In this document: in pieces, positions 39,790 to 59,658 of the stretch
How positions within the stretch are numbered: the first letter of the stretch is position 1
How the letters are laid out: the number at the start of each line of letters is the position of its first letter
Assembly: GCA_030645915.1 (NCBI GenBank)
Contig: JAUSNO010000017.1
Location: 186,001 to 250,000 of the forward strand
DNA length: 64,000 nt
Reading direction: 5' to 3'
DNA from: Undibacterium sp.
GTDB lineage: Bacteria; Pseudomonadota; Gammaproteobacteria; Burkholderiales; Burkholderiaceae_D
Program-made: the position numbers and the translations under genes
The notes under the pieces: generated by a model
The model's input: only the letters and a program-made list of their open reading frames with translations
Database searches by the model: none
What the model was told of the DNA's origin: nothing

Positions 39790-40179
39790 ATGAAACCACT
39801 TTGGAAGAATAAGTTCGTCACTACCTGGATCGCCATTTTTGCGATCTTGCTGAGTGCGCTTGCTCCTTCCATTTCTTCTGCGTTGACGATGCGTAATGCC
39901 AGCTCGCCCGGCTGGTCAGAGATTTGCAGTGCCTCGAATGTTTATTCTTCAGCCAACAAGATGAGCAAAAAAGCGTCCGGCACATCGGATGCGCACGAAT
40001 CCAAGCATTGCCCGTTTTGCCTGCCGCATGCCGGCAACTTTGCCTTGCCGCCAGCGGTGATGCCTTGCTGCGCTGTGGCTGCCGGCCATGACGCCTTTCC
40101 TCCCCTGTATTATCAAGCGCCGTCCCTGCTGTTTTCCTGGGTAACGGCCAATCCTCGTGGCCCTCCGCAACTGTCCTGA
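39790..40179 (+). CDS. DUF2946 exported protein
   Basis: A 129-aa small protein with an N-terminal signal or anchor (about 10-30), followed by a Cys/His-rich stretch: HESKHCPFCLPHAGNF and VMPCCAVAAGHD. The family often lies beside copper genes and TonB receptors, and CxxC with nearby His could bind Cu(I) (inference). It is the first gene of the plus-strand copper-acquisition block. A TATAAT box so close to the ATG suggests a leaderless mRNA. Confidence 0.8.
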   Translation: MKPLWKNKFVTTWIAIFAILLSALAPSISSALTMRNASSPGWSEICSASNVYSSANKMSKKASGTSDAHESKHCPFCLPHAGNFALPPAVMPCCAVAAGHDAFPPLYYQAPSLLFSWVTANPRGPPQLS

Positions 40180-40335
40180 TTCACTCCAACACCGTTAACG
40201 GTAGGTAGTCTTTACGTTGCGCATTGCAACGCATGACATATATCTACAAGCGGCCCTGAGTCTTTCGTCATAGGAAAAATGTCGCATCACGTCTGCTGAT
40301 TTTTTGCATGTTGTGCTGCGCATTGAAACAACACC
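40180..40335. other. Short gap with inverted repeat
   Basis: A perfect dyad CGTTGC-GCATT-GCAACG lies at 40215-40231. It could be an operator for the TonB gene or an attenuating hairpin; no regulator can be named. Confidence 0.35.
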
Positions 40336-41028
40336 ATGCGTCATCTTGCCTTTGCTCATAGCGACAGCCATCTGCCGTCCATCGTATTGCCACGCTCCGC
40401 CTCCATCCTCAAAGTGATGCTGGTGATCGGCTTGCACGCTGGCTTGCTGGCCGCTGCGCTACATGCCACCGGCGTGATGACGCGCAGCGCCGTGCCGCTG
40501 CCTATGAGCTTGATGACAGTCATGATTGCGGCACCCGCCAAACCCGTTGCGGCGACTGCATCGCCCAAGCCGGCTCAGGTGATACCACGTTTGCCGTCGG
40601 CCCAGCTTGCCTTGCCGGATACGCCGCAACTGAGCCGCAGCTTGCCGGCAGCAGTCAGCGTATCAGTGCCGGCTACAGCGGTTGCGCCTGTGGTGACACC
40701 TGCAATGACACCTGTGATAGCGGCGCAAGCAGTCGTGCCGACCTTAACCGAAGCCAGTTTCGATGCGGCCTACCTGAACAATCCGGCGCCGGCCTATCCC
40801 CTGATGTCGCGCCGCAATGGCGAAGCGGGCAAGGTCTTGCTGCTGGTGCAGGTGAGCAAACAGGGTACGGCGGCGCAGGTCGAGATCAAGCAAAGCTGCG
40901 GCTTTGCCAGGCTTGATGAGGCGGCGCTGGAGGCCGTGCGCAAATGGCGCTTTATACCGGCGCGGCGCGGCGAAGAAGTGATTGCGGCGAGCGTGGTGGT
41001 GCCTTTGACATTCAGACTCAATAGCTAA
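40336..41028 (+). CDS. TonB-type energy transducer
   Basis: A 230-aa protein. It has a basic cytoplasmic start, one membrane helix (about 28-52), an Ala/Pro/Val-rich periplasmic linker, and a C-terminal TonB domain (about 145-230) with NPAPAYPLMSRRNGEAG and ALEAVRKWRFIPARRG. It transmits inner-membrane proton force to outer-membrane receptors. Its receptor gene follows 39 bp later. No exbB or exbD is present here, so it must borrow them. It is likely dedicated to the two receptors of this cluster. Confidence 0.85.
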   Translation: MRHLAFAHSDSHLPSIVLPRSASILKVMLVIGLHAGLLAAALHATGVMTRSAVPLPMSLMTVMIAAPAKPVAATASPKPAQVIPRLPSAQLALPDTPQLSRSLPAAVSVSVPATAVAPVVTPAMTPVIAAQAVVPTLTEASFDAAYLNNPAPAYPLMSRRNGEAGKVLLLVQVSKQGTAAQVEIKQSCGFARLDEAALEAVRKWRFIPARRGEEVIAASVVVPLTFRLNS

Positions 41029-41067
41029 AAATTCACATTAAATATTCTCTTTAAAAAAAGACAAAAA

Positions 41068-43188
41068 ATGAACTTCAAACATAAACCAATTTATCTCGCA
41101 CTTATCTCAATACTCAGCAGCACGAGCTACGCAGCGGAGGTGCAGGTGCTCGATGAAATGGTGGTATCGGGCTCGCGCACCGCCACCAAATTATCCGAAA
41201 CCCCGGTCGCCATCGGCGTCGTCAACGACAACATACTCAAGCGCGACAAACCCAAGACCATGGGCGAGGTGATCAACCGCATCCCCGGCGTCTACTGGAA
41301 CGATCTGGGCAACGAGCAGCACAGCATGGGCATACGCCAGCCGATCAGTACCAATGCGGTGTACCAGTATCTGGAAGACGGCATCCCCATCCGCCCGCTC
41401 GGTGTGTTCAACCATAATTCACTCAATGAAATGAACCTGGCCGGCAGCGAAAGCGTGGAGGTCGTCAAGGGTGCGGCATCGTCTTTATATGGCAGCAATG
41501 CGGTCGGCGGTGCGGTTAACTTTTTGACGGCGCGGCCATCCGCCACGCCATTCGCCAGTGTCAGCGCGCGTGTTGACACTACTGCCGGCTTCAAGCGTGT
41601 GGATACTGCCGCCAGCAATAGCTGGGGCGACCTTGGCCTGCGCTTTTCGCATTACAGCTCACGCCGCGACACCAACAACTGGCAGGATTACAGCAAGGGC
41701 GATAAGGATTCTTTCTCGCTGCGCGGCGACTATGCTCTCAATAATTCTTCCCTGTTGCGCGCCACTCTGGTGCATACCGATCTGGATGCCGCCATGACCG
41801 GCGGTTTGAACGAAACCGATTACCGTAATACGCCGGGCAAGAGCATCAATACCTTCACCTACCGCAAGGATAAAACAACGCGTGCCAATCTGGCCTGGGA
41901 GGCAGAAACGCTACAAAATGGCCTGACCACCGTGACGCTGTTTAGCCGCAAGAACGATCACGGCCAGATCCCGAGTTACACGCTGTCGGGTTGCAATGCT
42001 GCGGCTGCCGTATGCCAAGGCACGCTCAACAATAACCATGTCGATTCGATCGGCCTCGATGCCAAGCATCAGCAGGAATTGAGCTGGCTGTCGTCGCGCC
42101 TGATCGCCGGCGTCTATCTGGACAACAGCGACAACCCTTATTTCAGCAATAATCTGCGCGTAATCCGTGACCCTGTCAGTGGCAAGAATCTCAGTTACAC
42201 ACTGGCCAATAGCACCAATCCAAAAGGCGTGCGCGACTACAGCACAGATATCACCAACACGGCATTTTTTGCGCAGTGGGAATTCACGCCTTTGCCATTG
42301 ACACGCGTCGTGGTCGGTGCGCGATCTGACGCAATCAAATACGATTTCGTGAATCATCTCTCGCCTGCCGGCAGCGCCAATTATGGCGCCGCCAACGAGT
42401 CGCGCAGCTTCTCGCATGTCAGCCCCAAGATAGGCGCGACCTATGCATTGAGCCGCGACAGCAGCGTTTACAGCAATATCAGCCAGGGGTTTACGCCACC
42501 GGAAGTGAGCCAGTTATATGGCAAAACCGGCATCCCGAATCTTGCCCCTGCCACCTACAATAACTACGAGCTGGGCCTGCGCATGGGCTTTCTGGAGGGT
42601 GCGCTGAAACTTGATACCGCCCTGTACCGCCTTGACGGGCGCGACACCATCGTCAGCTACACGATTGCACCGGGCAATAGCGAAAACCGCAATGCCGGCC
42701 GTACCCGCAGCCAGGGTATGGAGCTGGGCTTGAACTACGATGCGGGCATGGTCGATGCGCGCATCGGCACCACGATCGCCACGCACAAGTTCCAGACCTA
42801 TCAAGTCTCGGGCAGCCTCGATTACAGCGGCAAAGAAATGCCTCAGGCACCAAGCGACATCACCACGGCCGAGCTCGGCTACAAGCCGATGGCCGGCGCC
42901 CGGGTGGCACTAGAGCTTGTGCATCAAGGCGACTACTGGATGAACAACGCCAACACCGTGCGCTACGCCGGCCATACCCTGTTGAACCTGCGTGGCAGCT
43001 ACCTCGTTACCAAAGAGTTGGAAGTCTGGTTACAGGCACGTAACCTGGCGGACAAACGCTATGCAGACTCCGCATCAAGCTCGTATTCCGGCGTCGGCGC
43101 CTATGTGCCGGATACGCAAAACTCGTACACGCCGGGTGCGCCGCGCAGCGTCATGCTGGGTTTGACTTATCGTTTTGGCGGCAGATAA
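41068..43188 (+). CDS. TonB-dependent outer-membrane receptor
   Basis: A 706-aa outer-membrane barrel. It has a signal peptide (about 1-22) and a TonB-box-like EMVVSGSRT. The plug (about 35-155) contains INRIPGVYWND and VEVVKGAASSLYGSNAVGG, and a 22-strand-type barrel ends in the aromatic-rich YRFGGR. It lacks the Met-rich CxxxM/HxM pattern of the second receptor in the cluster, so its substrate could be a copper chelate or another metal complex. The start of the next gene is 2 bp after its stop. Confidence 0.88.
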   Translation: MNFKHKPIYLALISILSSTSYAAEVQVLDEMVVSGSRTATKLSETPVAIGVVNDNILKRDKPKTMGEVINRIPGVYWNDLGNEQHSMGIRQPISTNAVYQYLEDGIPIRPLGVFNHNSLNEMNLAGSESVEVVKGAASSLYGSNAVGGAVNFLTARPSATPFASVSARVDTTAGFKRVDTAASNSWGDLGLRFSHYSSRRDTNNWQDYSKGDKDSFSLRGDYALNNSSLLRATLVHTDLDAAMTGGLNETDYRNTPGKSINTFTYRKDKTTRANLAWEAETLQNGLTTVTLFSRKNDHGQIPSYTLSGCNAAAAVCQGTLNNNHVDSIGLDAKHQQELSWLSSRLIAGVYLDNSDNPYFSNNLRVIRDPVSGKNLSYTLANSTNPKGVRDYSTDITNTAFFAQWEFTPLPLTRVVVGARSDAIKYDFVNHLSPAGSANYGAANESRSFSHVSPKIGATYALSRDSSVYSNISQGFTPPEVSQLYGKTGIPNLAPATYNNYELGLRMGFLEGALKLDTALYRLDGRDTIVSYTIAPGNSENRNAGRTRSQGMELGLNYDAGMVDARIGTTIATHKFQTYQVSGSLDYSGKEMPQAPSDITTAELGYKPMAGARVALELVHQGDYWMNNANTVRYAGHTLLNLRGSYLVTKELEVWLQARNLADKRYADSASSSYSGVGAYVPDTQNSYTPGAPRSVMLGLTYRFGGR

Positions 43189-43190
43189 TC

Positions 43191-44465
43191 ATGACAAATT
43201 ATTCGCGACAAAATTATTTTCTACAAATCAGGCGACTGCTTGCAATGGCGGGTTTAGCTGCGATGCTGATGCCAGCCCTGGCACAGCAACAGATCATGAA
43301 GCTGGCCAGCGACAAAAAAACCTTGCCCACCATAGGCAGTGCCTTTGCCCCCGATGGCAGCCTGTGGCTGCTGCAGCAAGATGCGCAGGCACGTCTGACC
43401 CTGCAAGTGAGCAAGGACGACGGCAACAGCTGGCAACCGGCACGCGTGCTGGACACCGGCAGCGATACCGTCAAGACCAGCGGCGAGAGCCCGCCCAGGC
43501 TGCTCTTCGGCTCCGGGGGCGTGGTCATCGTCAGCTACGCCCAGCCGCTGGCGAAAAAATTTACCGCAGAAATACGCCTGCTGCGTTCCACCGATGGCGG
43601 CGCGACTTTTGCCGCACCGGTCACGCTGCATCAGGACCGGCAAGTCATCAGCCACAGTTTTTCCAACATGGCATTTGATGGCAAGGGAGTGCTGCATACA
43701 GTCTGGATAGATTCGCGCGAGAAAGTCGCAACCGTAGCTGCAGCCGCTGCCGCCGCATCTTCAGGCAAGGCCGGCAATGCCAATGTCGCCTATCGCGGCG
43801 TCTCGCTGTATCGCAATGTCTCGCTCGATGGCGGCGCAACTTTCGGGCCGGACACCAAGCTGGCCGACCACAGTTGCGAGTGCTGCAGGCTGGCGCTATC
43901 GGCAACGCCCGACGGCCGGGTTGCTGCAATGTGGCGCCAAGTCCTGGAGCCGAATATCCGCGACCATGCCTTCGCGATTTTGCCAGCGCTGGCTGATTTC
44001 TCAGCGTCAGCAACATCAGCAACACCGGTCAAGCCGGTGCGCGCCAGTCACGACAACTGGGCCATCGACGGTTGCCCGCATCACGGCCCCGGTCTCACCA
44101 TGGCCGCGGGCGGCGGCTACCATGCGGTCTGGTTCGGCGACCGGGCGGGCGTGGCACAAGTACGCTATGGCAAACTCGATCAGACCGGCCAGCCGGTTGG
44201 CGAGGTGCAGCCACTGCCGGACGAGCGCGCCGAACACGCCGACATCATGAGCAGCGGCGGCAAGCTCGTCATCGTCTGGCGCAGCTTTGACGGCCAAGGC
44301 ATGAATATGAAAGCCTGGGTGTCAGACGACGATGGCCGGCACTTCAGGCTCAGGCAACTGGCACGCACCGAGGGCGATAGCGATTACCCGCGCCTGCTGA
44401 ACAAGAACGGACAAATTTTTGTCATCTGGAACACTACCGGGAAACGCCATGTTGAAGCTTTCTAA
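43191..44465 (+). CDS. Exported Asp-box (sialidase-like) propeller with Cys/His motifs
   Basis: A 424-aa periplasmic protein with a signal peptide (about 1-31). Four Asp-box motifs (SKDDGNSW 74-81, STDGGATF 133-140, SLDGGATF 211-218, SDDDGRHF near the end) show a BNR beta-propeller of sialidase shape. The catalytic Arg/Tyr/Glu set of true sialidases is not apparent. Two insertions, HSCECCR (C229, C231, C232) and GCPHHGPG (C295, H297, H298), look like a metal site. Placed between a TonB receptor and a CxxC protein, it may capture or store copper in the periplasm (inference). Confidence 0.75.
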   Translation: MTNYSRQNYFLQIRRLLAMAGLAAMLMPALAQQQIMKLASDKKTLPTIGSAFAPDGSLWLLQQDAQARLTLQVSKDDGNSWQPARVLDTGSDTVKTSGESPPRLLFGSGGVVIVSYAQPLAKKFTAEIRLLRSTDGGATFAAPVTLHQDRQVISHSFSNMAFDGKGVLHTVWIDSREKVATVAAAAAAASSGKAGNANVAYRGVSLYRNVSLDGGATFGPDTKLADHSCECCRLALSATPDGRVAAMWRQVLEPNIRDHAFAILPALADFSASATSATPVKPVRASHDNWAIDGCPHHGPGLTMAAGGGYHAVWFGDRAGVAQVRYGKLDQTGQPVGEVQPLPDERAEHADIMSSGGKLVIVWRSFDGQGMNMKAWVSDDDGRHFRLRQLARTEGDSDYPRLLNKNGQIFVIWNTTGKRHVEAF

Positions 44466-44958
44466 GTTGCAGCTCTCGAATTATCAGCTCTCCAAATACG
44501 CTTGCGCGCTGGCGCTGGCGCTGACCAGCATTCAGGTGCCGGCCGCCGCCAGAAAGATAGAAAATTTCGACGGCCGCACCTGGCCGCGCATGCAAAAAGA
44601 ATTGCCACGCCCTGCGGCGGTAATTTTTTCCACCACCGATTGCGGCCACTGCCCCGCCATCATCGCTGCCATGGCAGAGCAGATAAAAAACCACAAGCCG
44701 CAGATTCCGCTGATCGTCGTCGTGATGGATGGCGATGGCCAAGCCGATCTGCTGCAAGAGCCACACTACCAGGCCGCCAGCCGCCTGTTCGTTTTCAAGG
44801 GACAAACAGCGGCGCTGCAATACGGCATCAACCCCAGCTGGCGCGGCATTACGCCATATGTGGCGCTGCTGCCCAAAGCGGGCGCAGTCAAGCTGGTGCT
44901 GGGCAAGCCATCCGAGCAAGAGCTGGACAACTGGCTGGCAGCCCGTACCAAACCTTAA
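44449..44958 (+). CDS. Exported thioredoxin-like CGHC protein
   Basis: A 169-aa protein from the ATG at 44449. It has an N-terminal signal or anchor (about 17-34) and a thioredoxin-like fold whose active site reads TTDCGHCPA (C65, C68), the CGHC form of protein disulfide isomerases. It overlaps the upstream propeller gene by 17 bp, a sign of coupling. A role in reducing the propeller's cysteines or passing Cu(I) on is possible but not shown. Confidence 0.75.
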   Translation: MLKLSKLQLSNYQLSKYACALALALTSIQVPAAARKIENFDGRTWPRMQKELPRPAAVIFSTTDCGHCPAIIAAMAEQIKNHKPQIPLIVVVMDGDGQADLLQEPHYQAASRLFVFKGQTAALQYGINPSWRGITPYVALLPKAGAVKLVLGKPSEQELDNWLAARTKP

Positions 44959-45020
44959 ACCAAAGTATCAGCGCCATTCATCGAGCGCATTTTCGGCAAC
45001 ACTCATTTCAGAAAGAATTT

Positions 45021-47249
45021 ATGCAGCACTCAGCAAAACCTATCGTAATCGCTATCAGCTTCGCTTTGGCCGCCATGGCACAAACGGCACTAGCGCAGAA
45101 CAATGTCACCACGCCATCTAGCGCAATCAAGGTCTTACCTGAGGCAAGCGTCTATGCATCAAGAATATCCACAATAGAAGCTTCCAGCTCCATTCTTGAT
45201 GCGAGCCAGATTGCAGCGAAACGCACAGCCAATAGCGATACAGCGACGCTCCTTAAAGACATCCCGGGTGTCAGTCTTAATGGTGCTGGTGGCGTGTCCA
45301 GTCTCGCTGCCATTCACGGTTTGGCCGATGACCGGATACGCATACAAGTAGATGGCATGGATTTAATTTCAGCCTGTGCCAACCACATGAATTCACCACT
45401 TTCCTACATTGACCCTAGCAAAGTCTCCACAATCAAGGTGTTCGCCGGTATCGCTCCGGTAAGCGCCGGTGGCGACAGCATTGCAGGCACGATCCAGGTC
45501 AACTCAGCCGCGCCGGAATTCACCAAAGCTGGCGACGACATATTGATCAAGGGAGAAGCTGGCACTTTTTATCGCAGCAATGGTAACGCCCATGGTGCCA
45601 ATCTATCGGCAAGCATTGCCAATGACTCATTGAGCGTCCACTACGCCGCCTCAACCACGCAAGCGGGTAACTATAGTGCGGCAAAAGACTTCAAGGCGGC
45701 GGCACAATCGGTTGGTACCAGTTCCTTCATCAAGGGCGATGAAGTGGCGTCGTCTGCATACAAGTCGGAAAATCAGTCGATCGCCCTGGCCCTGCGCCAT
45801 GAACAACATGTGCTCGAATTGCAACTCGGCTTGCAAAGCTTGCCGTATCAGGGGTTTCCCAATCAGCGCATGGATATGACGGGCAATGACAGCCATCAGA
45901 TCAATATTCACTATGCGGGGCAATATCTGTGGGGTAGCCTGGACGCACGCATCTACAACGAAAATACGCGCCACAAGATGAATTTCCTCGACGACAAAAT
46001 GCCTATAGGTTCCAAAGGCATGCCTATGGATACCGAAGGAAAAACCAGCGGCGCCAAAATCAAAGCCGACCTTGCCCTATCAGAACGCGATACGCTCAGC
46101 GTAGGTGCAGAATACCAACGCTACCGTCTCAATGACTGGTGGGATCCGGTGGCAACTAGCGGCGGTATGGGTGGCGGTGCGTTTATCAATATCAATAACG
46201 GCCAACGCGACCGCAGTGATATTTTTGCTGAATGGTCGGCAGCCTGGAGCGCCCGGTGGCAGTCTCAATTGGGAATGCGTAGCAGCACTATGAGCATGAA
46301 CACCGATACGGTAAAAGGCTACAACCCAGTCAATTACCCGATAGCCAGCTACGCGGCGTTCAACGCGGCTGATCGAAACAAGACAGATCACAATCTTGAT
46401 CTGACAGCATCGCTGCGATTTCTTCCAAGTGCAGAAATGACACTGGAAGGCGGTTATGCGCGCAAAACCAGATCGCCCAATTTATATGAGCGCTTTGCCT
46501 GGTCGACCAACAACAAGATGGTCATGAACATGATCAACTGGACCGGCGACGCCAATGGCTATGTCGGCAATCTGGACTTGAAACCAGAAACCGCCAACAC
46601 CCTCAGCGCGACCGCAAACTGGCACGATGCTTCCAATGAAGTATGGAAGCTGAGCATGACGCCCTACTTTACCCATGTGGAAAACTTTATCGATGCCGCA
46701 CGTTGTCCAATCGCCGCCGGCACACCTTGTACGCTGGCAAATAGCACCGCCAATACCGGCTTTGTCTACCTTCAGTTTATCAATCAGACGGCCCGGCTAT
46801 ATGGTGCCGATATTTCCGGCTTTGCCACACTGGCAAAAAACGCGCAATTCGGCAATGTCACTGCCAGCGGTTTGCTGAACTACACCAAAGGCAAAAACCA
46901 GACTACCGGCGACCAGCTCTACAACATCATGCCGCTCAATGCCAAACTAGCACTCATACAACATATGGGTAACTGGACCAATACGATAGAAACGCAGTTT
47001 GTCGGTGCAAAAACGCACACTTCACAGGTGCGCAATGAACTTGCGACTAGCGGGTATAGCTTACTCAATCTGCGTAGTGCTTATCAATGGAAGCAATACC
47101 GTGTTGAGGTCGGGGTCGATAACGCCTTGAACAAGTTCTATGCATCCCCTACCGGTGGCGCTTACGTGGGTCAACGGCCGATGAACTACGGCATGCCCGT
47201 TCCCGGCATCGGGCGCTCTTTGTATGCGGCCCTAAGCATGAAGCTATAA
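45021..47249 (+). CDS. OprC/NosA-like TonB-dependent copper receptor
   Basis: A 742-aa outer-membrane receptor with a signal peptide (about 1-25), plug and barrel. CANHM (C119-M123) in the plug and HKM (H318-M320) in a loop match the CxxxM and HxM copper ligands known from OprC of Pseudomonas aeruginosa. Other Met-rich patches include MDMTGND, KMPIGSKGMPMD and NKMVMNMINW. NosA/OprC proteins import copper for nitrous oxide reductase. The longer open frame from 44502 is ignored because the signal starts at 45021. It is followed by a strong hairpin and then a PCuAC chaperone gene. Confidence 0.9.
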   Translation: MQHSAKPIVIAISFALAAMAQTALAQNNVTTPSSAIKVLPEASVYASRISTIEASSSILDASQIAAKRTANSDTATLLKDIPGVSLNGAGGVSSLAAIHGLADDRIRIQVDGMDLISACANHMNSPLSYIDPSKVSTIKVFAGIAPVSAGGDSIAGTIQVNSAAPEFTKAGDDILIKGEAGTFYRSNGNAHGANLSASIANDSLSVHYAASTTQAGNYSAAKDFKAAAQSVGTSSFIKGDEVASSAYKSENQSIALALRHEQHVLELQLGLQSLPYQGFPNQRMDMTGNDSHQINIHYAGQYLWGSLDARIYNENTRHKMNFLDDKMPIGSKGMPMDTEGKTSGAKIKADLALSERDTLSVGAEYQRYRLNDWWDPVATSGGMGGGAFININNGQRDRSDIFAEWSAAWSARWQSQLGMRSSTMSMNTDTVKGYNPVNYPIASYAAFNAADRNKTDHNLDLTASLRFLPSAEMTLEGGYARKTRSPNLYERFAWSTNNKMVMNMINWTGDANGYVGNLDLKPETANTLSATANWHDASNEVWKLSMTPYFTHVENFIDAARCPIAAGTPCTLANSTANTGFVYLQFINQTARLYGADISGFATLAKNAQFGNVTASGLLNYTKGKNQTTGDQLYNIMPLNAKLALIQHMGNWTNTIETQFVGAKTHTSQVRNELATSGYSLLNLRSAYQWKQYRVEVGVDNALNKFYASPTGGAYVGQRPMNYGMPVPGIGRSLYAALSMKL

Positions 47250-47264
47250 GGGCATTTTTCGATG

Positions 47265-47288
47265 TTGAAGAGTGGGCACACTCTTCAA
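47265..47288 (+). terminator. Strong hairpin after the copper receptor gene
   Basis: A perfect 10-bp stem, TTGAAGAGTG and CACTCTTCAA with a GGCA loop, begins 15 bp after the receptor stop codon. There is no T tract, so it may stabilise or process the mRNA rather than terminate it. Confidence 0.5.
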
Positions 47289-47301
47289 ACGAAATATTGA
47301 T

Positions 47302-47383
47302 GGCACGCCCAACACGCAATGTCCATGCACCCTGCAGGCCAGAGTGGCTGGAAACCCCCATGGACATTGCGTGTCAGGCATGG
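47302..47383. repeat. Dispersed palindromic element, copy D
   Basis: The core arms CACGCAATGTCCATG and CATGGACATTGCGTG are perfectly complementary and differ from copy B at paired positions. The outer arms are TGGCACGCC and GGCATGGCA, and CTTTTT follows. It lies between two same-strand genes. Confidence 0.85.
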
Positions 47384-47466
47384 CACTTTTTGGTTTTTAC
47401 AGAAATACAGCGCAACCATATCGCATTACAAGCGCATCATCCACACATCAAACAAAAGGAAACACC

Positions 47467-47925
47467 ATGAAAAAGAACCTGCTCGCTACCCTGCTCGCGC
47501 TTTGCCTTTCATCGATGGCGCAAGCCCAGGTCACGGTGAAAGACGCCTGGGTGCGCGCCACCGTCGCGCAACAAAAAGCCACCGGCGCCTTCATGCAAAT
47601 CCATTCAGCCAAAGACACGCGCCTGATCGAGGTGCGCTCAAGCGCAGCGGCAGTGGTTGAATTGCATAAAATGGAGTTGGTCGACAATGTCATGAAAATG
47701 CGTGCCATCGATGCGCTCGATTTGACAGCAGGAAAGACAGTGGAATTGAAACCGGGCGGTTATCACGTCATGTTGATGGAGCTCAAGGCGCAGGTGAAGG
47801 AAGGCGATATCATCCCGCTTAGCCTGGTAATAGAAGGCAAGGACAAGAAGCGCGAGACGATAGAATTGAAAGCCGTCGCCAGATCCATGAATCAGGCCGC
47901 TGCGCCCGCCATGCAGCATCATTAA
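47467..47925 (+). CDS. Periplasmic copper chaperone PCu(A)C
   Basis: A 152-aa exported chaperone. After the signal peptide (about 1-20), the family copper site H(M)X10MX21HXM is visible as LHKMEL, VMKM, and GGYHVMLM. PCuAC proteins deliver Cu(I) to CuA sites of cytochrome oxidase and related enzymes. Here the CuA of NosZ is a likely client because of the location. A good AAAGGAAAC site precedes the ATG at 47467. The His-rich end (MQHH) may also bind copper. Confidence 0.88.
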   Translation: MKKNLLATLLALCLSSMAQAQVTVKDAWVRATVAQQKATGAFMQIHSAKDTRLIEVRSSAAAVVELHKMELVDNVMKMRAIDALDLTAGKTVELKPGGYHVMLMELKAQVKEGDIIPLSLVIEGKDKKRETIELKAVARSMNQAAAPAMQHH

Positions 47926-47967
47926 TCCACATCATCAAACTTCATTCTCAGCAACACGGAGCCATCT

Positions 47968-48168
47968 ATGCAGACCAATAAATTCGATTACGCCATGGCG
48001 ATGAGCGTCGCGCGTTGTTTCAATGTCGCCGCCATCTGTGCGCTGGCGATCTGGCACGGCTATGCGTTTTACCTGAACCAGGCGATAGCCCGCAGCCCGG
48101 CATCGCAGACCATTGAATTGAAATTGCAAGAAACCCCGGCTGCTGTTACCGCAAGAAATGGTATCTGA
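47968..48168 (+). CDS. Small membrane protein of unknown function
   Basis: A 66-aa protein with one predicted helix (about 17-37, ARCFNVAAICALAIWHGYAF) and a polar C-terminus. A GGAG site lies before the ATG. It starts 42 bp after the PCuAC gene, so it is probably in the same transcript. I recognise no family. The single Cys and His in the membrane segment are worth noting in a copper context. The stop abuts palindromic copy E. Confidence 0.6.
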   Translation: MQTNKFDYAMAMSVARCFNVAAICALAIWHGYAFYLNQAIARSPASQTIELKLQETPAAVTARNGI

Positions 48169-48254
48169 TGGCGGGCATGCCCTGTCACGCAGTATCCATG
48201 GGCCTTTCCAGCCGGTCTGGCCTGTAAGGCGCACGGGGATTGCGTGCTGGCGAT
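48169..48254. repeat. Dispersed palindromic element, copy E
   Basis: The left arm TCACGCAGTATCCATGGGC and the right arm GCACGGGGATTGCGTGCTGG carry the family core, with outer pieces GGCGGGCATG and GGCGATGG. It starts at the base after a stop codon and lies between convergent genes. Confidence 0.75.
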
Positions 48255-48269
48255 GGGGCAGATTGAACT

Positions 48270-48806
48270 CTACTTCATCGCCGATTTCAGCTTGATTCGC
48301 TCACCGGCCAGCATGAAATTGCCATGACCCTGATGATGGATGGTCCTGGGATTTTTGACCGCCGGATCGAGCCAGGCTTTGACTACCTCGATCACGAACA
48401 TGCCATATTTGGCAACAAGGCCGGTATCGACTACGCGGCACTCCAGGCTGGCGAAGCATTCATCGATGAGCGGCGCTGTTACCAGGCTTGCCGGTTTTTG
48501 GGTCAGGCCGAACTGTTCAAATTTATTGATCTTCGCGCCAGAAGTATTGCCGCAGCCAACGACCTTTTCAGCGATCTCTGCGGTGGGAATATTGATCACA
48601 CACTGCTTGCTGGCCTTGAGCATCTCGAACGAATGATTGCGGTTGCTGATCACGCAGCCGATCAACGGCGGCTCGAATTCGATCATGGTCTGCCACGACA
48701 TCGTCATGACATTGGCGACGCCATCATGAAAGGTGGTCAGCAAGAGCACCGGGCCCGGCTCCAGCAAGCCATAGACCTTGGATAATGGATAGGATTTTTT
48801 TGTCAT
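48270..48806 (-). CDS. Flavin reductase family protein
   Basis: A 178-aa FMN-binding split-barrel protein. PLSKVYGLLEPGPVLLLTT begins the fold, with MSWQTMIEFEPPLIG and NRNHSFEMLK following, as in flavin reductase-like proteins that bind FMN and NAD(P)H. The start at 48806 is preceded by a GATAGT -10 box and an FNR-type site and has no ribosome binding site. It stands in the same direction as apbE and the cytochrome gene and may supply reduced flavin or FMN for NosR flavinylation (inference). Confidence 0.82.
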   Translation of the reverse strand: MTKKSYPLSKVYGLLEPGPVLLLTTFHDGVANVMTMSWQTMIEFEPPLIGCVISNRNHSFEMLKASKQCVINIPTAEIAEKVVGCGNTSGAKINKFEQFGLTQKPASLVTAPLIDECFASLECRVVDTGLVAKYGMFVIEVVKAWLDPAVKNPRTIHHQGHGNFMLAGERIKLKSAMK

Positions 48807-48815
48807 CGTGGTGCC

Positions 48816-48857
48816 ACTATCCGCTACCTGCCCCCTGACGAGCTTGAGATTGATCAA
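48816..48857 (-). promoter_or_regulatory. FNR/Dnr-type promoter of the flavin reductase gene
   Basis: TTGAGATTGATCAA (48844-48857) matches TTGA-N6-TCAA. A -10-like GATAGT lies at 48816-48821. With the box centred at 48850.5, a class II (-41.5) start falls at about 48809, three bases before the ATG at 48806, so the mRNA would be leaderless. Confidence 0.65.
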
Positions 48858-48891
48858 CTCAACAGACAGATGCGAAGCGGGAGCGAAAAAT

Positions 48892-49932
48892 TTAGCTGCG
48901 CACCCAGCGCTGGTGCATACCGGGAGACGACCAGAGCTGGCTATCGGCATCGACAATCAGCGCATCCACGCCGGCCATCTGCCTGAGCCTGGCGCGGCCG
49001 GCATCAGCACCCGCCACCATGATCGCGGCACCCAGGCCATTGATCACGTCCAGCCGCTCGCTGATCAGCGTCAAGCCATGCGGCCCCTGTGTCGGATAGC
49101 CGGTTTTGGGATCGAGAATATGGTGCAGGCGCTTACCCTCGTGCATGACAAAGCGCTCGTAATCGCCAGAGGCGGCAACAAATCCTTTGTGTAAGGCGAC
49201 CACACCCAGCAGCTGATCTGGCTGGCGCGGGTCACGCACACCGATACGCCAGTCGCGCCCGTTAAGCTGGCCATTGACCAGTACATCGCCGCCGCCGTTG
49301 ATCATGGCGTTTTTTACGCCGTGTGATTGCAGTTGATGCATGCCTGCCTGCAAGATCGGCAGTTTGGCGATACCGCCCAGATCGAGCCGCATACCGCGCT
49401 TGCTCAGGTAGGCCGTGCCCAGGCGTTCGTTGAGGATGAGGCCTTTGCCATCGACCAGTGGCAATTGCGCCGCGATTTGCTGCGCAGTGGGAATGGACGG
49501 ATGGGCCGCATCAAAATCCCAATCGCGCAAGGAGCCGACCGTCACATCAAAAGCGCCAACGCTGGCGAGCGAAGCCTGGCGCGCCATCTTCAGCACTTGC
49601 AGCATTTCTGGCGGCACAGTGACAGGCTGCACACCGGCAGACAGGTTGATGGCATTGAGCACGCTGGTGCTGCGATAGCGGCTCATCATGTCGGCCAGCC
49701 TGGCCATTTCGGCAAACGCGGCGTCGGCGGCACTTGCCAGCGCCTGAGTGTCGCTGCCCTGCAAGGTCAGGTCGACCCGCGTCCCCATCAATATTCTTGC
49801 AGACTGATGAATGTCGGCCTTGGCCTGCACCGGTGCCACCACCAGACCACAGGCAAGGAAAGGCAGCGTAAACGCCAGACGGCGGCGGTTTAGCTGGATA
49901 GATACGACAGGATCGATAGGGCGGGAAGACAT
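48892..49932 (-). CDS. nosX: FAD:protein FMN transferase ApbE family (NosX-like)
   Basis: A 346-aa protein with a Tat-like signal (NRRRLAFTLPFL, about 15-26). ApbE family features include ARILMGTRVDLTL, GAFDVTVGSLRDW, DLGGIAKLPIL and INGGGDVLVNG with HHILDPKTGYP. ApbE attaches FMN to a Thr of flavoproteins such as NosR, whose DAISGAT motif is nearby. It is 19 bp downstream of the cytochrome c gene. The region after DLGGIAK departs from the usual GYAVD. Confidence 0.88.
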   Translation of the reverse strand: MSSRPIDPVVSIQLNRRRLAFTLPFLACGLVVAPVQAKADIHQSARILMGTRVDLTLQGSDTQALASAADAAFAEMARLADMMSRYRSTSVLNAINLSAGVQPVTVPPEMLQVLKMARQASLASVGAFDVTVGSLRDWDFDAAHPSIPTAQQIAAQLPLVDGKGLILNERLGTAYLSKRGMRLDLGGIAKLPILQAGMHQLQSHGVKNAMINGGGDVLVNGQLNGRDWRIGVRDPRQPDQLLGVVALHKGFVAASGDYERFVMHEGKRLHHILDPKTGYPTQGPHGLTLISERLDVINGLGAAIMVAGADAGRARLRQMAGVDALIVDADSQLWSSPGMHQRWVRS

Positions 49933-49951
49933 GATTTTTCCAAAGGACAGA

Positions 49952-50344
49952 TTAACGCGACTGATCAACCATATAAGCGACAGTTGCCTTGATTTCGTCG
50001 TCAGTGAGCGCCGGGTTACCGCCACGCGCCGGCATCTGGCCCTTGGCGCCGGTGAAACCTTCGATCGCATGCTTATTGAGCATATCCATGCCCTGGGCAA
50101 TACGCGGACCCCAGTCAGCCTTGTCGCCTGGCTTAGGTGCGCCCGCTACATTGGCGGCGTGGCACAGCGAACAGGTCTTGCCGTAGATGCCTTTGCCTAT
50201 GGTATTTTCAGGAACCGCCGGTGCAGCCACCACTACCGCGCTGGCAGAGGCGACGGCGGCGGAAGGTGCGGCCGTTTCTTTTTGGCCGCAGGCGCTGAGC
50301 AGGGCGAGACTGAACAGACTTAATAACAGAGCGGACGATTTCAT
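49952..50344 (-). CDS. Lipoprotein cytochrome c (c5-like)
   Basis: A 130-aa exported cytochrome with lipobox LLSAC (C19), an Ala/Val-rich linker and one haem motif CSLCH (58-62). The probable axial Met is in GQMPARGG near 107. It is of the small class I/c5 type. It is divergent from nosZ across an FNR box and is probably an electron donor to NosZ (inference). AAGGAAAA precedes the ATG. Confidence 0.87.
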   Translation of the reverse strand: MKSSALLLSLFSLALLSACGQKETAAPSAAVASASAVVVAAPAVPENTIGKGIYGKTCSLCHAANVAGAPKPGDKADWGPRIAQGMDMLNKHAIEGFTGAKGQMPARGGNPALTDDEIKATVAYMVDQSR

Positions 50345-50475
50345 AGTAATTTTCCTTGGTAATAAATAGCTAGGGTAGCGCACGCGCGCGAAATAATTCA
50401 ACAGCGAGAGTGTCGCATATCAAGGTTTGAGGCAGCGCAAACCCGACACATAAATGAGCTGCTTTTTTGAATTTC

Positions 50476-59026: not shown

Positions 59027-59658
59027 ATGAGGCTGCGCCTGCCCGATGTGAAGCTCTACACTTGGGCGGTGCTCACGCTGTTAAGCGCCCTCGTCTTTAT
59101 AAAACTGCTGCCGTGGCATGCCGCTTCGTCAGAATCAGAGCGCCTGGCGGTGATCGGCGAAATCTGTGTTGTCGCCCCCGCCACACCCTATGCCCCAGCT
59201 GGGGCATAGGCCTGCACGCACCGCGCACTGTACCGATCGATGCGCGCTGCCCGGTCTGTGGCATGTATCCGGCGCGCGCGCGCGACTGGGCCGCGCAAGT
59301 CATCTTCAGCAACGGCGACACGCAGTTTTTCGACTCGCCCCTGACATTATTTATCTACCTGCAAGACCCGGGGCGCTACAGTATCGGCCGCCGCGCCAGC
59401 GAGGTCGCGGTCAGCTATGTGAGCGATACCGCCGACGGCAAATGGATCAAGGCCAGTGACGCCTTCTATGTCAGCGGCTCCAGCGCGATGGGCCCTATGC
59501 GCGCCGGCAACCTGCCGGCTTTTTCCAGCATGACAGCGGCGCAGCGATTTGCCGACAGCCGTGGCGGTGTCATCTTGCAGGCGAATAAAATCAGTCCGCA
59601 GCAACTGCAAAACCTCAACGGCGCACGCCGGCATAAGCATACAGAACCTGGCCGCTGA
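59027..59658 (+). pseudogene. Second nosL-like gene, frameshifted
   Basis: The first frame (59027-59209) encodes MRLRLPDVKL, a membrane anchor and a short linker, then stops. A second frame (from about 59203) continues with RTVPIDARCPVCGMYPARAR, DTQFFDSPL, GSSAMGPM and FADSRGG, which is the conserved NosL/CPVCGM core. The frames differ by one missing base (or two extra) at a G run inside a 22-bp perfect palindrome (CTATGCCCCAG and its complement, 59188-59209). Adding one G would restore one ORF of about 210 codons. It may be a real mutation, a sequencing error at the hairpin, or a programmed shift. Confidence 0.8.

What the first reader, a model, noticed from the sequence alone, without database searches (positions are those of the whole stretch)
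39790..48168. Possible new copper-acquisition module attached to nos genes
DUF2946, TonB, a TonB-dependent receptor, a secreted Asp-box propeller with CxCC and CPHH motifs, a CGHC thioredoxin-like protein, an OprC/NosA-like receptor, PCuAC and a 66-aa membrane protein are all on one strand next to nosRZDFYL. The last receptor and PCuAC are known copper proteins; the propeller, CGHC protein, DUF2946 protein and 66-aa protein have no described copper role. The gene overlaps (2 bp gap, then a 17-bp overlap) suggest they work together, perhaps as an extraction and hand-over chain for Cu(I).
Basis: partly seen in the sequence, partly recalled or inferred. Interest (0 to 1): 0.75.

Follow-up and report, generated by a model that had tools for sequence, protein, structure and literature searches.

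The report
CruR-led copper import operon with propeller
Beside its N2O reductase genes this bacterium carries a likely copper-uptake operon, led by a known type of copper-sensing leader gene, that contains a recurring pair (a four-cysteine propeller protein and a thioredoxin-like partner) for which we found no description and which may catch and pass on imported copper.

Summary
The genes are real and lie where stated, but three opposite-strand genes separate them from nosZ and the 66-aa ORF is an orphan. DUF2946 does have a described copper role: it matches CruR, the copper-sensing leader ORF of Bordetella pertussis (CxxC, 45-residue spacing, RGPP three residues from the C terminus, 156-bp gap). 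The core is leader - TonB-dependent receptor - propeller - thioredoxin-like protein, not a nos accessory. In 31 family-survey loci: receptor upstream 26/29, DUF2946 23/26, thioredoxin-like gene downstream 28/31; nosZ occurs in 0 of 136 other loci. Propeller C229/C231/C232/C295 are invariant (133/133) and the only cysteines in 123; H297 is in 128, H298 in 120. The partner's CxxC is invariant (122/122); CGHC is not (2/122). In one unnamed genus the pair sits in some copies of a pcuABCDE-like copper operon and is missing from others. Across loci the receptor is swapped while the pair stays together (r 0.80 against 0.41). Best reading: a copper-starvation importer whose periplasmic propeller, kept reduced by its partner, passes copper on. 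No metal was measured. None of 17 same-class, other-order genomes has DUF2946 beside the propeller.

The parts
39790..40179 (+). DUF2946 leader ORF of the CruR type (C74xxC77, R123-G-P-P, three residues before the stop)
   Evidence: PF11162 73 bits; only DUF2946 match in this genome; motif spacing 45 and tail 3 as in B. pertussis CruR
40180..40335 (+). 156-bp leader-to-operon gap (B. pertussis: 162 bp)
   Evidence: coordinates; PMC9426467
40336..41028 (+). TonB, probably dedicated; no exbB/exbD in the block
   Evidence: PF03544 71 bits; TonB within 5 kb in 5 of 25 family, 4 of 21 class+phylum and 9 of 48 named loci
41068..43188 (+). TonB-dependent receptor 1, nearest solved relative YncD/PqqU
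43191..44465 (+). exported seven-bladed-type Asp-box propeller with invariant C229, C231, C232, C295
44449..44958 (+). thioredoxin-like partner, C65xxC68, 17-bp overlap with the propeller gene
45021..47249 (+). TonB-dependent receptor 2, OprC-like, CxxxM at 119-123 and HxM at 318-320
47295..47395 (.). interspersed palindromic repeat, terminator-like on the plus strand, between receptor 2 and PCuAC
   Evidence: 43 matches in the genome
47467..47925 (+). PCuAC copper chaperone, with the H-X10-M-X21-H-X-M letters
   Evidence: PF04314 121 bits; motif read from the sequence, definition
47968..48168 (+). 66-aa ORF with one hydrophobic stretch; orphan, not a conserved part of the module

Best explanation
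A copper-starvation import operon of the CruR-led kind with an extra, recurring two-gene unit (propeller plus thioredoxin-like protein). Steps: (1) When copper is scarce the ribosome stalls on the nascent leader at R-G-P-P and the genes behind it are transcribed; copper at its CxxC ends this (shown in B. pertussis by others; inferred here from matching hallmarks). (2) The receptors, driven by TonB, bring a copper species into the periplasm (inferred). (3) The exported propeller takes the copper at a site of C229/C231/C232, C295, H297 and perhaps H259 on one face of adjacent blades (conservation shown; site and metal inferred). (4) The thioredoxin-like partner keeps those cysteines reduced, as TlpA does for ScoI and CoxB (inferred from fold, CxxC, gene coupling and co-inheritance). 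(5) Copper passes to PCuAC where that is encoded, and on to heme-copper oxidases or, here, possibly NosZ (inferred).
For: CruR hallmarks. Synteny: receptor 26/29, DUF2946 23/26, thioredoxin-like 28/31 in the family survey; 58/64, 51/58, 75/76 in 76 named loci. Four Cys invariant in 133/133 and the only ones in 123/133; the three motifs fall on loops of one face by strand order. Thioredoxin fold with invariant CxxC, hits to ResA, TlpA, CcmG and Sco chains. Propeller and thioredoxin co-vary (r 0.80) while receptors are swapped (r 0.41). In genus g330 the pair sits between receptor and PCuAC-YcnI-CopC/D in 6 of 6 fetched carriers. A distant propeller is followed by CopC.
Against: No metal binding or copper response measured for propeller or partner. 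Of 24 class and phylum genomes with a propeller, 14 have no DUF2946 match, two more only weak distant ones, one an unlinked one, and 11 have no PCuAC: hand-over to PCuAC cannot be general and copper is unproven there. PCuAC is near in only 3 of 25 family loci. Receptor 1 is nearest to a PQQ transporter, and its column H298 is His in only 54 and Met in 27 of 103. A B. japonicum receptor deletion (PcuB) had no phenotype (passage). Eighteen of 86 leaders have 41-42 residues between the motifs, outside the published one-to-two-residue range.
Confidence: 0.58

Rival explanations
1. The propeller is the client, not the carrier: a copper-dependent periplasmic enzyme on a propeller scaffold, with the thioredoxin-like protein preparing its Cys site and the receptor feeding it.
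For: Invariant Cys, His, Asp, Arg and Trp look like an active site; NosZ shows that propellers can carry copper clusters (recalled); some loci have no other copper protein nearby.
Against: A CruR-type leader expresses its operon when copper is scarce, an odd time to make a copper enzyme. The pair occurs inside an importer-chaperone operon.
Confidence: 0.16
2. The module imports another ligand or metal, or a metallophore, in part of its range; the propeller handles that ligand (for example strips or cuts a chelator), and the copper link holds only where a CruR leader was added.
For: No DUF2946 beside the propeller in 17 of 17 same-class, other-order genomes, and neither DUF2946 nor PCuAC anywhere in 10 of 24 class and phylum genomes. 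Receptor types differ widely. Lectin- and glycosidase-like fold.
Against: The same invariant residues in both groups; CruR, PCuAC, YcnI and CopC/D association in the others.
Confidence: 0.17
3. A module dedicated to loading NosZ.
For: Adjacent here; propeller and nosZ co-occur across family genomes (12 of 31 against 7 of 114, p 2e-5; by genus p 3e-4).
Against: NosZ in 0 of 136 other loci; 19 of 31 propeller genomes lack nosZ; two same-genus genomes have nosZ without the propeller.
Confidence: 0.05
4. Copper protection rather than acquisition: the propeller is a Cys-rich copper trap.
For: CopC/CopD-type genes occur beside it in some genomes.
Against: CruR-type leaders shut their operons off in copper, and an outer-membrane receptor stands beside the propeller in 26 of 29 family loci.
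Confidence: 0.04

Closest known systems
cruR-crtA-crpH operon of Bordetella pertussis (PMC9426467, PMC12914433, PMC13038864)
   Same: DUF2946 leader with CxxC and RAPP-type tail, long gap, then a TonB-dependent receptor; PCuAC, TonB or AhpC_TSA genes are reported in such operons.
   Different: No PepSY_TM gene found in the block; receptor 1 is not CrtA-like; propeller and its partner are not named in the texts searched.
pcuABCDE copper-starvation operon of Bradyrhizobium japonicum (passages; exact gene order recalled)
   Same: DUF2946-type leader, receptor, PCuAC; in genus g330 the same operon exists with and without the pair.
   Different: The window has no YcnI or CopC/D in the block; the operon as recalled has no propeller or thioredoxin-like gene.
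OprC/NosA copper receptors (PMC8610252, passages)
   Same: Receptor 2 keeps CxxxM and HxM; five other loci keep them too.
   Different: 100 bits against a TIGR01778 cut-off of 472; only part of the chain aligns to OprC in the PDB search.
TlpA/ScoI-type periplasmic thiol reductants
   Same: Thioredoxin fold, CxxC, profile hits to ResA and TlpA.
   Different: Own family next to a propeller; no reductase activity known; no Sco-type CxxxC.
Asp-box propellers (PLL lectins, sialidases)
   Different: Invariant Cys/His set; FRIP-like motif in only 5 of 133 (motif recalled); no NCBIfam match.

Membership tests
CruR (DUF2946 leader ORF) | CxxC motif | tested here: met
   C74-P-F-C77 in the window; pattern in 89 of 91 linked leaders
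CruR (DUF2946 leader ORF) | RAPP-type arrest motif three residues from the C terminus | tested here: met
   RGPP + QLS; R.PP in 87 of 91 linked leaders, tail of 3 in 68 of 86
CruR (DUF2946 leader ORF) | about 45 residues between the motifs | tested here: met
   45 in the window; 45 in 38 of 86, 43-47 in 66 of 86, 41-47 in 84 of 86 linked leaders
CruR (DUF2946 leader ORF) | first gene of the operon, long gap behind it | tested here: met
   156 bp, upstream neighbour on the other strand; median 114 bp over 90 loci
CruR (DUF2946 leader ORF) | copper-controlled stalling and Rho termination | not testable with these tools
   needs reporter fusions
OprC/NosA (TIGR01778) | score over the curated cut-off | tested here: not met
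   100.3 of 472.45 bits
OprC/NosA (TIGR01778) | CxxxM-HxM copper ligands | tested here: met
   C119/M123 align with the OprC pair; HxM at 318-320 by pattern, both kept in 5 relatives
CrtA (BfrG) receptors | closest to CrtA among receptors | tested here: not met
   receptor 1: YncD 102.5 bits, CrtA structure 9RVQ 47.4 bits, partial
CrtA (BfrG) receptors | invariant His358 | tested here: inconclusive
   no residue-level alignment to 9RVQ over that region was made
PCuAC | PF04314 match and H-X10-M-X21-H-X-M | tested here: met
   120.7 bits; letters read from the sequence against the definition
GH33 sialidase | FRIP-type motif (recalled) | tested here: not met
   pattern in 5 of 133 propellers
GH33 sialidase | Asp-box propeller fold | tested here: met
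Sco copper chaperone | CxxxC(P) motif | tested here: not met
   invariant pair is CxxC, C65/C68, 122 of 122
TlpA/ResA-like thiol reductants | thioredoxin fold with CxxC, exported | tested here: met
TlpA/ResA-like thiol reductants | reduces a copper protein | not testable with these tools
   needs purified proteins
pcuABCDE operon | leader - receptor - PCuAC - YcnI - CopC/D | tested here: not met
   window block has no YcnI or CopC/D among its Pfam-scanned proteins; order met in genus g330 loci

The most novel reading that the evidence does not exclude
The propeller is a new kind of periplasmic copper-accepting hub: an Asp-box propeller turned into a thiolate/His copper site, recharged by its own thioredoxin-like reductase and able to serve many different outer-membrane receptors. 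It would be the missing step between TonB-dependent copper uptake and the periplasmic chaperones, moving as a two-gene cassette through CruR- and pcu-type operons.
Probability: 0.35. Interest if true: 0.8.

Novelty: new variant of a known kind. Interest (0 to 1): 0.6.

Why it matters
How copper gets from a TonB-dependent receptor to periplasmic chaperones is an open step; the receptor papers seen here (CrtA, OprC, TccA) name no periplasmic acceptor in the passages read. A conserved propeller with its own putative reductase, next to the receptor in most family loci, makes that step testable with one deletion and one metal-binding assay. It would also give a role to a protein family known only as BNR/Asp-box, present in 31 of 145 sampled genomes of this bacterial family.

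Tried and rejected
Considered and rejected: DUF2946 as a cargo chaperone of unknown role (CruR hallmarks); propeller as a sialidase; thioredoxin-like protein as Sco; nos-dedicated module; 66-aa ORF as a conserved part; receptor 1 as OprC- or CrtA-type.

Led nowhere or limited: the propeller profile against PDB sequences gave only weak sialidase-like hits. The receptor found without the pair in genus g330 gave no PDB sequence hit at 1e-12. Promoter-like sites were no more than in shuffles (5 against 7.4); terminator-like sites were more (24 against 13.3, sd 3.5), one of them at the repeat 47371-47386. Paper searches for a propeller or sialidase in copper import listed nothing that by title or abstract describes this pair; most subscription papers are not held. 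A first greedy gene caller failed on GC-rich loci and was replaced. A first six-frame count mis-scored extended frames; the counts used are those. The profiles used for labels were trained partly on the same loci, so labels are not independent; positions are. The structure tool gave no coordinates, so metal-site geometry is deduced from strand order only.

Selection and rows dropped: the 80 named loci were found with two patterns that contain the motifs and are the best 80 of at least 568, so motif conservation there is partly by construction; the family, class and phylum sets did not require the motifs. Four duplicate loci (L054, L055, L084, L096) were left out of the counts. Weak match G016 was dropped from the 32 hits. 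nosZ counts are 18 genomes over the cut-off plus the split gene of G021. In genus g330 I fetched 14 of 16 DUF1775-positive non-carriers and 6 of 23 carriers. The nosZ tests ignore phylogeny beyond genus. Class and genus names are not given by the tool.

Full report
WHAT IS THERE. The eight reported plus-strand ORFs exist at the stated places, with the 2-bp gap and the 17-bp overlap. Pfam names DUF2946, TonB, two TonB-dependent receptors, BNR/Asp-box repeats, a thioredoxin match below its cut-off, and PCuAC; the 66-aa ORF has no family. Between this block and nosZ (TIGR04244, 1000.6 bits) lie three minus-strand genes: flavin-reductase-like, ApbE and cytochrome c. After nosZ come nosR-like (below its cut-off), nosD-like (above it), and nosF-, nosY- and nosL-like ORFs named by position and sequence. 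The closest named locus by identity is an Undibacterium MAG (L052: receptor 1 85%, propeller 70%); the window's own taxon is not given.

LEADER. The DUF2946 protein is the only match in this genome. It has C74xxC77 and ends RGPPQLS. In B. [quoted passage not shown] changing RAPP abolishes expression of the genes behind it and changing CxxC impairs copper control (PMC9426467). Here the spacing is 45 and the tail 3. Among 91 DUF2946 proteins upstream of propellers, aligned C46 and C74 are in 91, C77 and R123 in 89. Of 86 with both motifs readable, spacing is 45 in 38, 43-47 in 66, 41-47 in 84, and the tail is 3 in 68. The gap is 156 bp here, median 114 bp over 90 loci, 162 bp in B. pertussis. 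So the copper role of DUF2946 is known, and it is regulation.

NEIGHBOURHOODS (denominators are loci with enough flank). Family survey, 31 loci: receptor within 500 bp upstream 26/29, DUF2946 within 6 kb 23/26, thioredoxin-like within 400 bp downstream 28/31, PCuAC within 5 kb 3/25. Class and phylum samples, 26 loci: 16/23, 8/23, 17/25, PCuAC 6/21. Named set, 76 loci: 58/64, 51/58, 75/76, PCuAC 22/48. Against my reading: of the 24 genomes behind the class and phylum sets, 14 have no DUF2946 at E 0.01, G266 and G386 only weak distant matches, G616 an unlinked one, and 11 have no PCuAC; 10 have neither. All 17 same-class, other-order genomes lack a DUF2946 beside the propeller. In L170 and L171 a Phenol_MetA_deg outer-membrane protein stands where the receptor usually is.

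CASSETTE BEHAVIOUR. In 83 receptor-propeller-thioredoxin triples, pairwise identities correlate at 0.80 for propeller and thioredoxin and 0.41 for propeller and receptor. Of 899 pairs with propellers over 55% identical, 461 have receptors under 30% and 54 have thioredoxins under 30%. In one unnamed genus (g330, 5-10 Mb; Bradyrhizobium-like is my guess) 23 of 40 genomes carry the propeller. Eighteen of these have a YcnI (DUF1775) gene, 17 of them within 5 kb of the propeller. Six of six fetched carriers read receptor - propeller - thioredoxin - PCuAC - YcnI - CopC/D, with DUF2946 detected ahead in five. Fourteen of 14 fetched non-carriers read DUF2946 - PCuAC - YcnI - CopC/D without the pair. 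A full-length receptor was recognised in 12 of the 14, of two types 19-23% identical to each other and 22-28% to the carriers' type. So here the pair comes with one receptor type, in an operon that resembles pcuABCDE (passages; exact order recalled). A distant propeller (L172) is followed by CopC.

NOS LINK. NosZ is in 0 of 136 other loci. In the family survey nosZ is in 19 of 145 genomes, 12 of them with the propeller: odds ratio 9.7, p 2e-5; without genus g13 p 0.002; by genus p 3e-4; DUF2946 shows no such link, p 0.76. In the 11 other genomes with both they are on different contigs or 637 kb apart. Copper demand or lifestyle may explain the enrichment.

RECEPTORS AND PCuAC. Receptor 2 carries the OprC site letters (PMC8610252 passages) but is far below the TIGR01778 cut-off. 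Receptor 1 is nearest to YncD/PqqU. In L052 PCuAC follows the thioredoxin-like gene directly; in the window receptor 2 and a repeat stand between them.

PAPERS SEEN. PMC9426467: abstract, first part (of three) of the results, sections on motifs and synteny, discussion, find passages. PMC12914433: abstract, first part (of three) of the results, structure section, discussion, find passages. PMC8610252, PMC13038864, PMC12617631, PMC6769254, PMC8424229: find passages only. Others: listings and abstract starts only. The words sialidase, BNR and propeller do not occur in the main texts of PMC9426467 and PMC12914433.

VERDICT. A new variant of a known kind: a CruR-led copper import operon with a recurring propeller-thioredoxin pair for which I found no description. 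Copper acquisition is well supported where CruR or pcu-type genes are present and open elsewhere; the hand-over mechanism is inference.

Noticed in passing
window 47295-47395 and 48181-48250: Interspersed palindromic repeat of about 80-100 bases, 43 matches in this genome; the two copies here are inverted and flank PCuAC plus the 66-aa ORF.
   Followed up: partly
window 48273-50401: Minus-strand flavin-reductase-like, ApbE and cytochrome c genes between the copper block and nosZ; ApbE may be the NosX-type flavinyltransferase (recalled) for NosR.
   Followed up: no
window 59062-59658: A second ORF after nosL that by eye resembles NosL (CPVCGM motif); NCBIfam gave no match at 1e-5.
   Followed up: no
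L196-L215 (genus g330): One operon slot between a DUF2946 leader and PCuAC holds three unrelated receptor types; only one type comes with the propeller pair.
   Followed up: partly
L170, L171 upstream of the propeller; L162 downstream: Phenol_MetA_deg outer-membrane proteins beside the propeller, in L170 and L171 in the place of the TonB-dependent receptor.
   Followed up: partly
L172 and L184 (genomes G280, G591): Second, distant propellers (about 110 bits) in genomes that also carry a closer one; the one in L172 is followed by CopC.
   Followed up: partly
L095, L103, L126: An OprC-like receptor, a DUF2946 gene and PCuAC lie downstream of the propeller pair, suggesting a second copper unit side by side.
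   Followed up: no
L181, 7072-7512: A transposase-like ORF stands behind PCuAC where its relative L180 has YcnI and CopC/D (named by eye).
   Followed up: no
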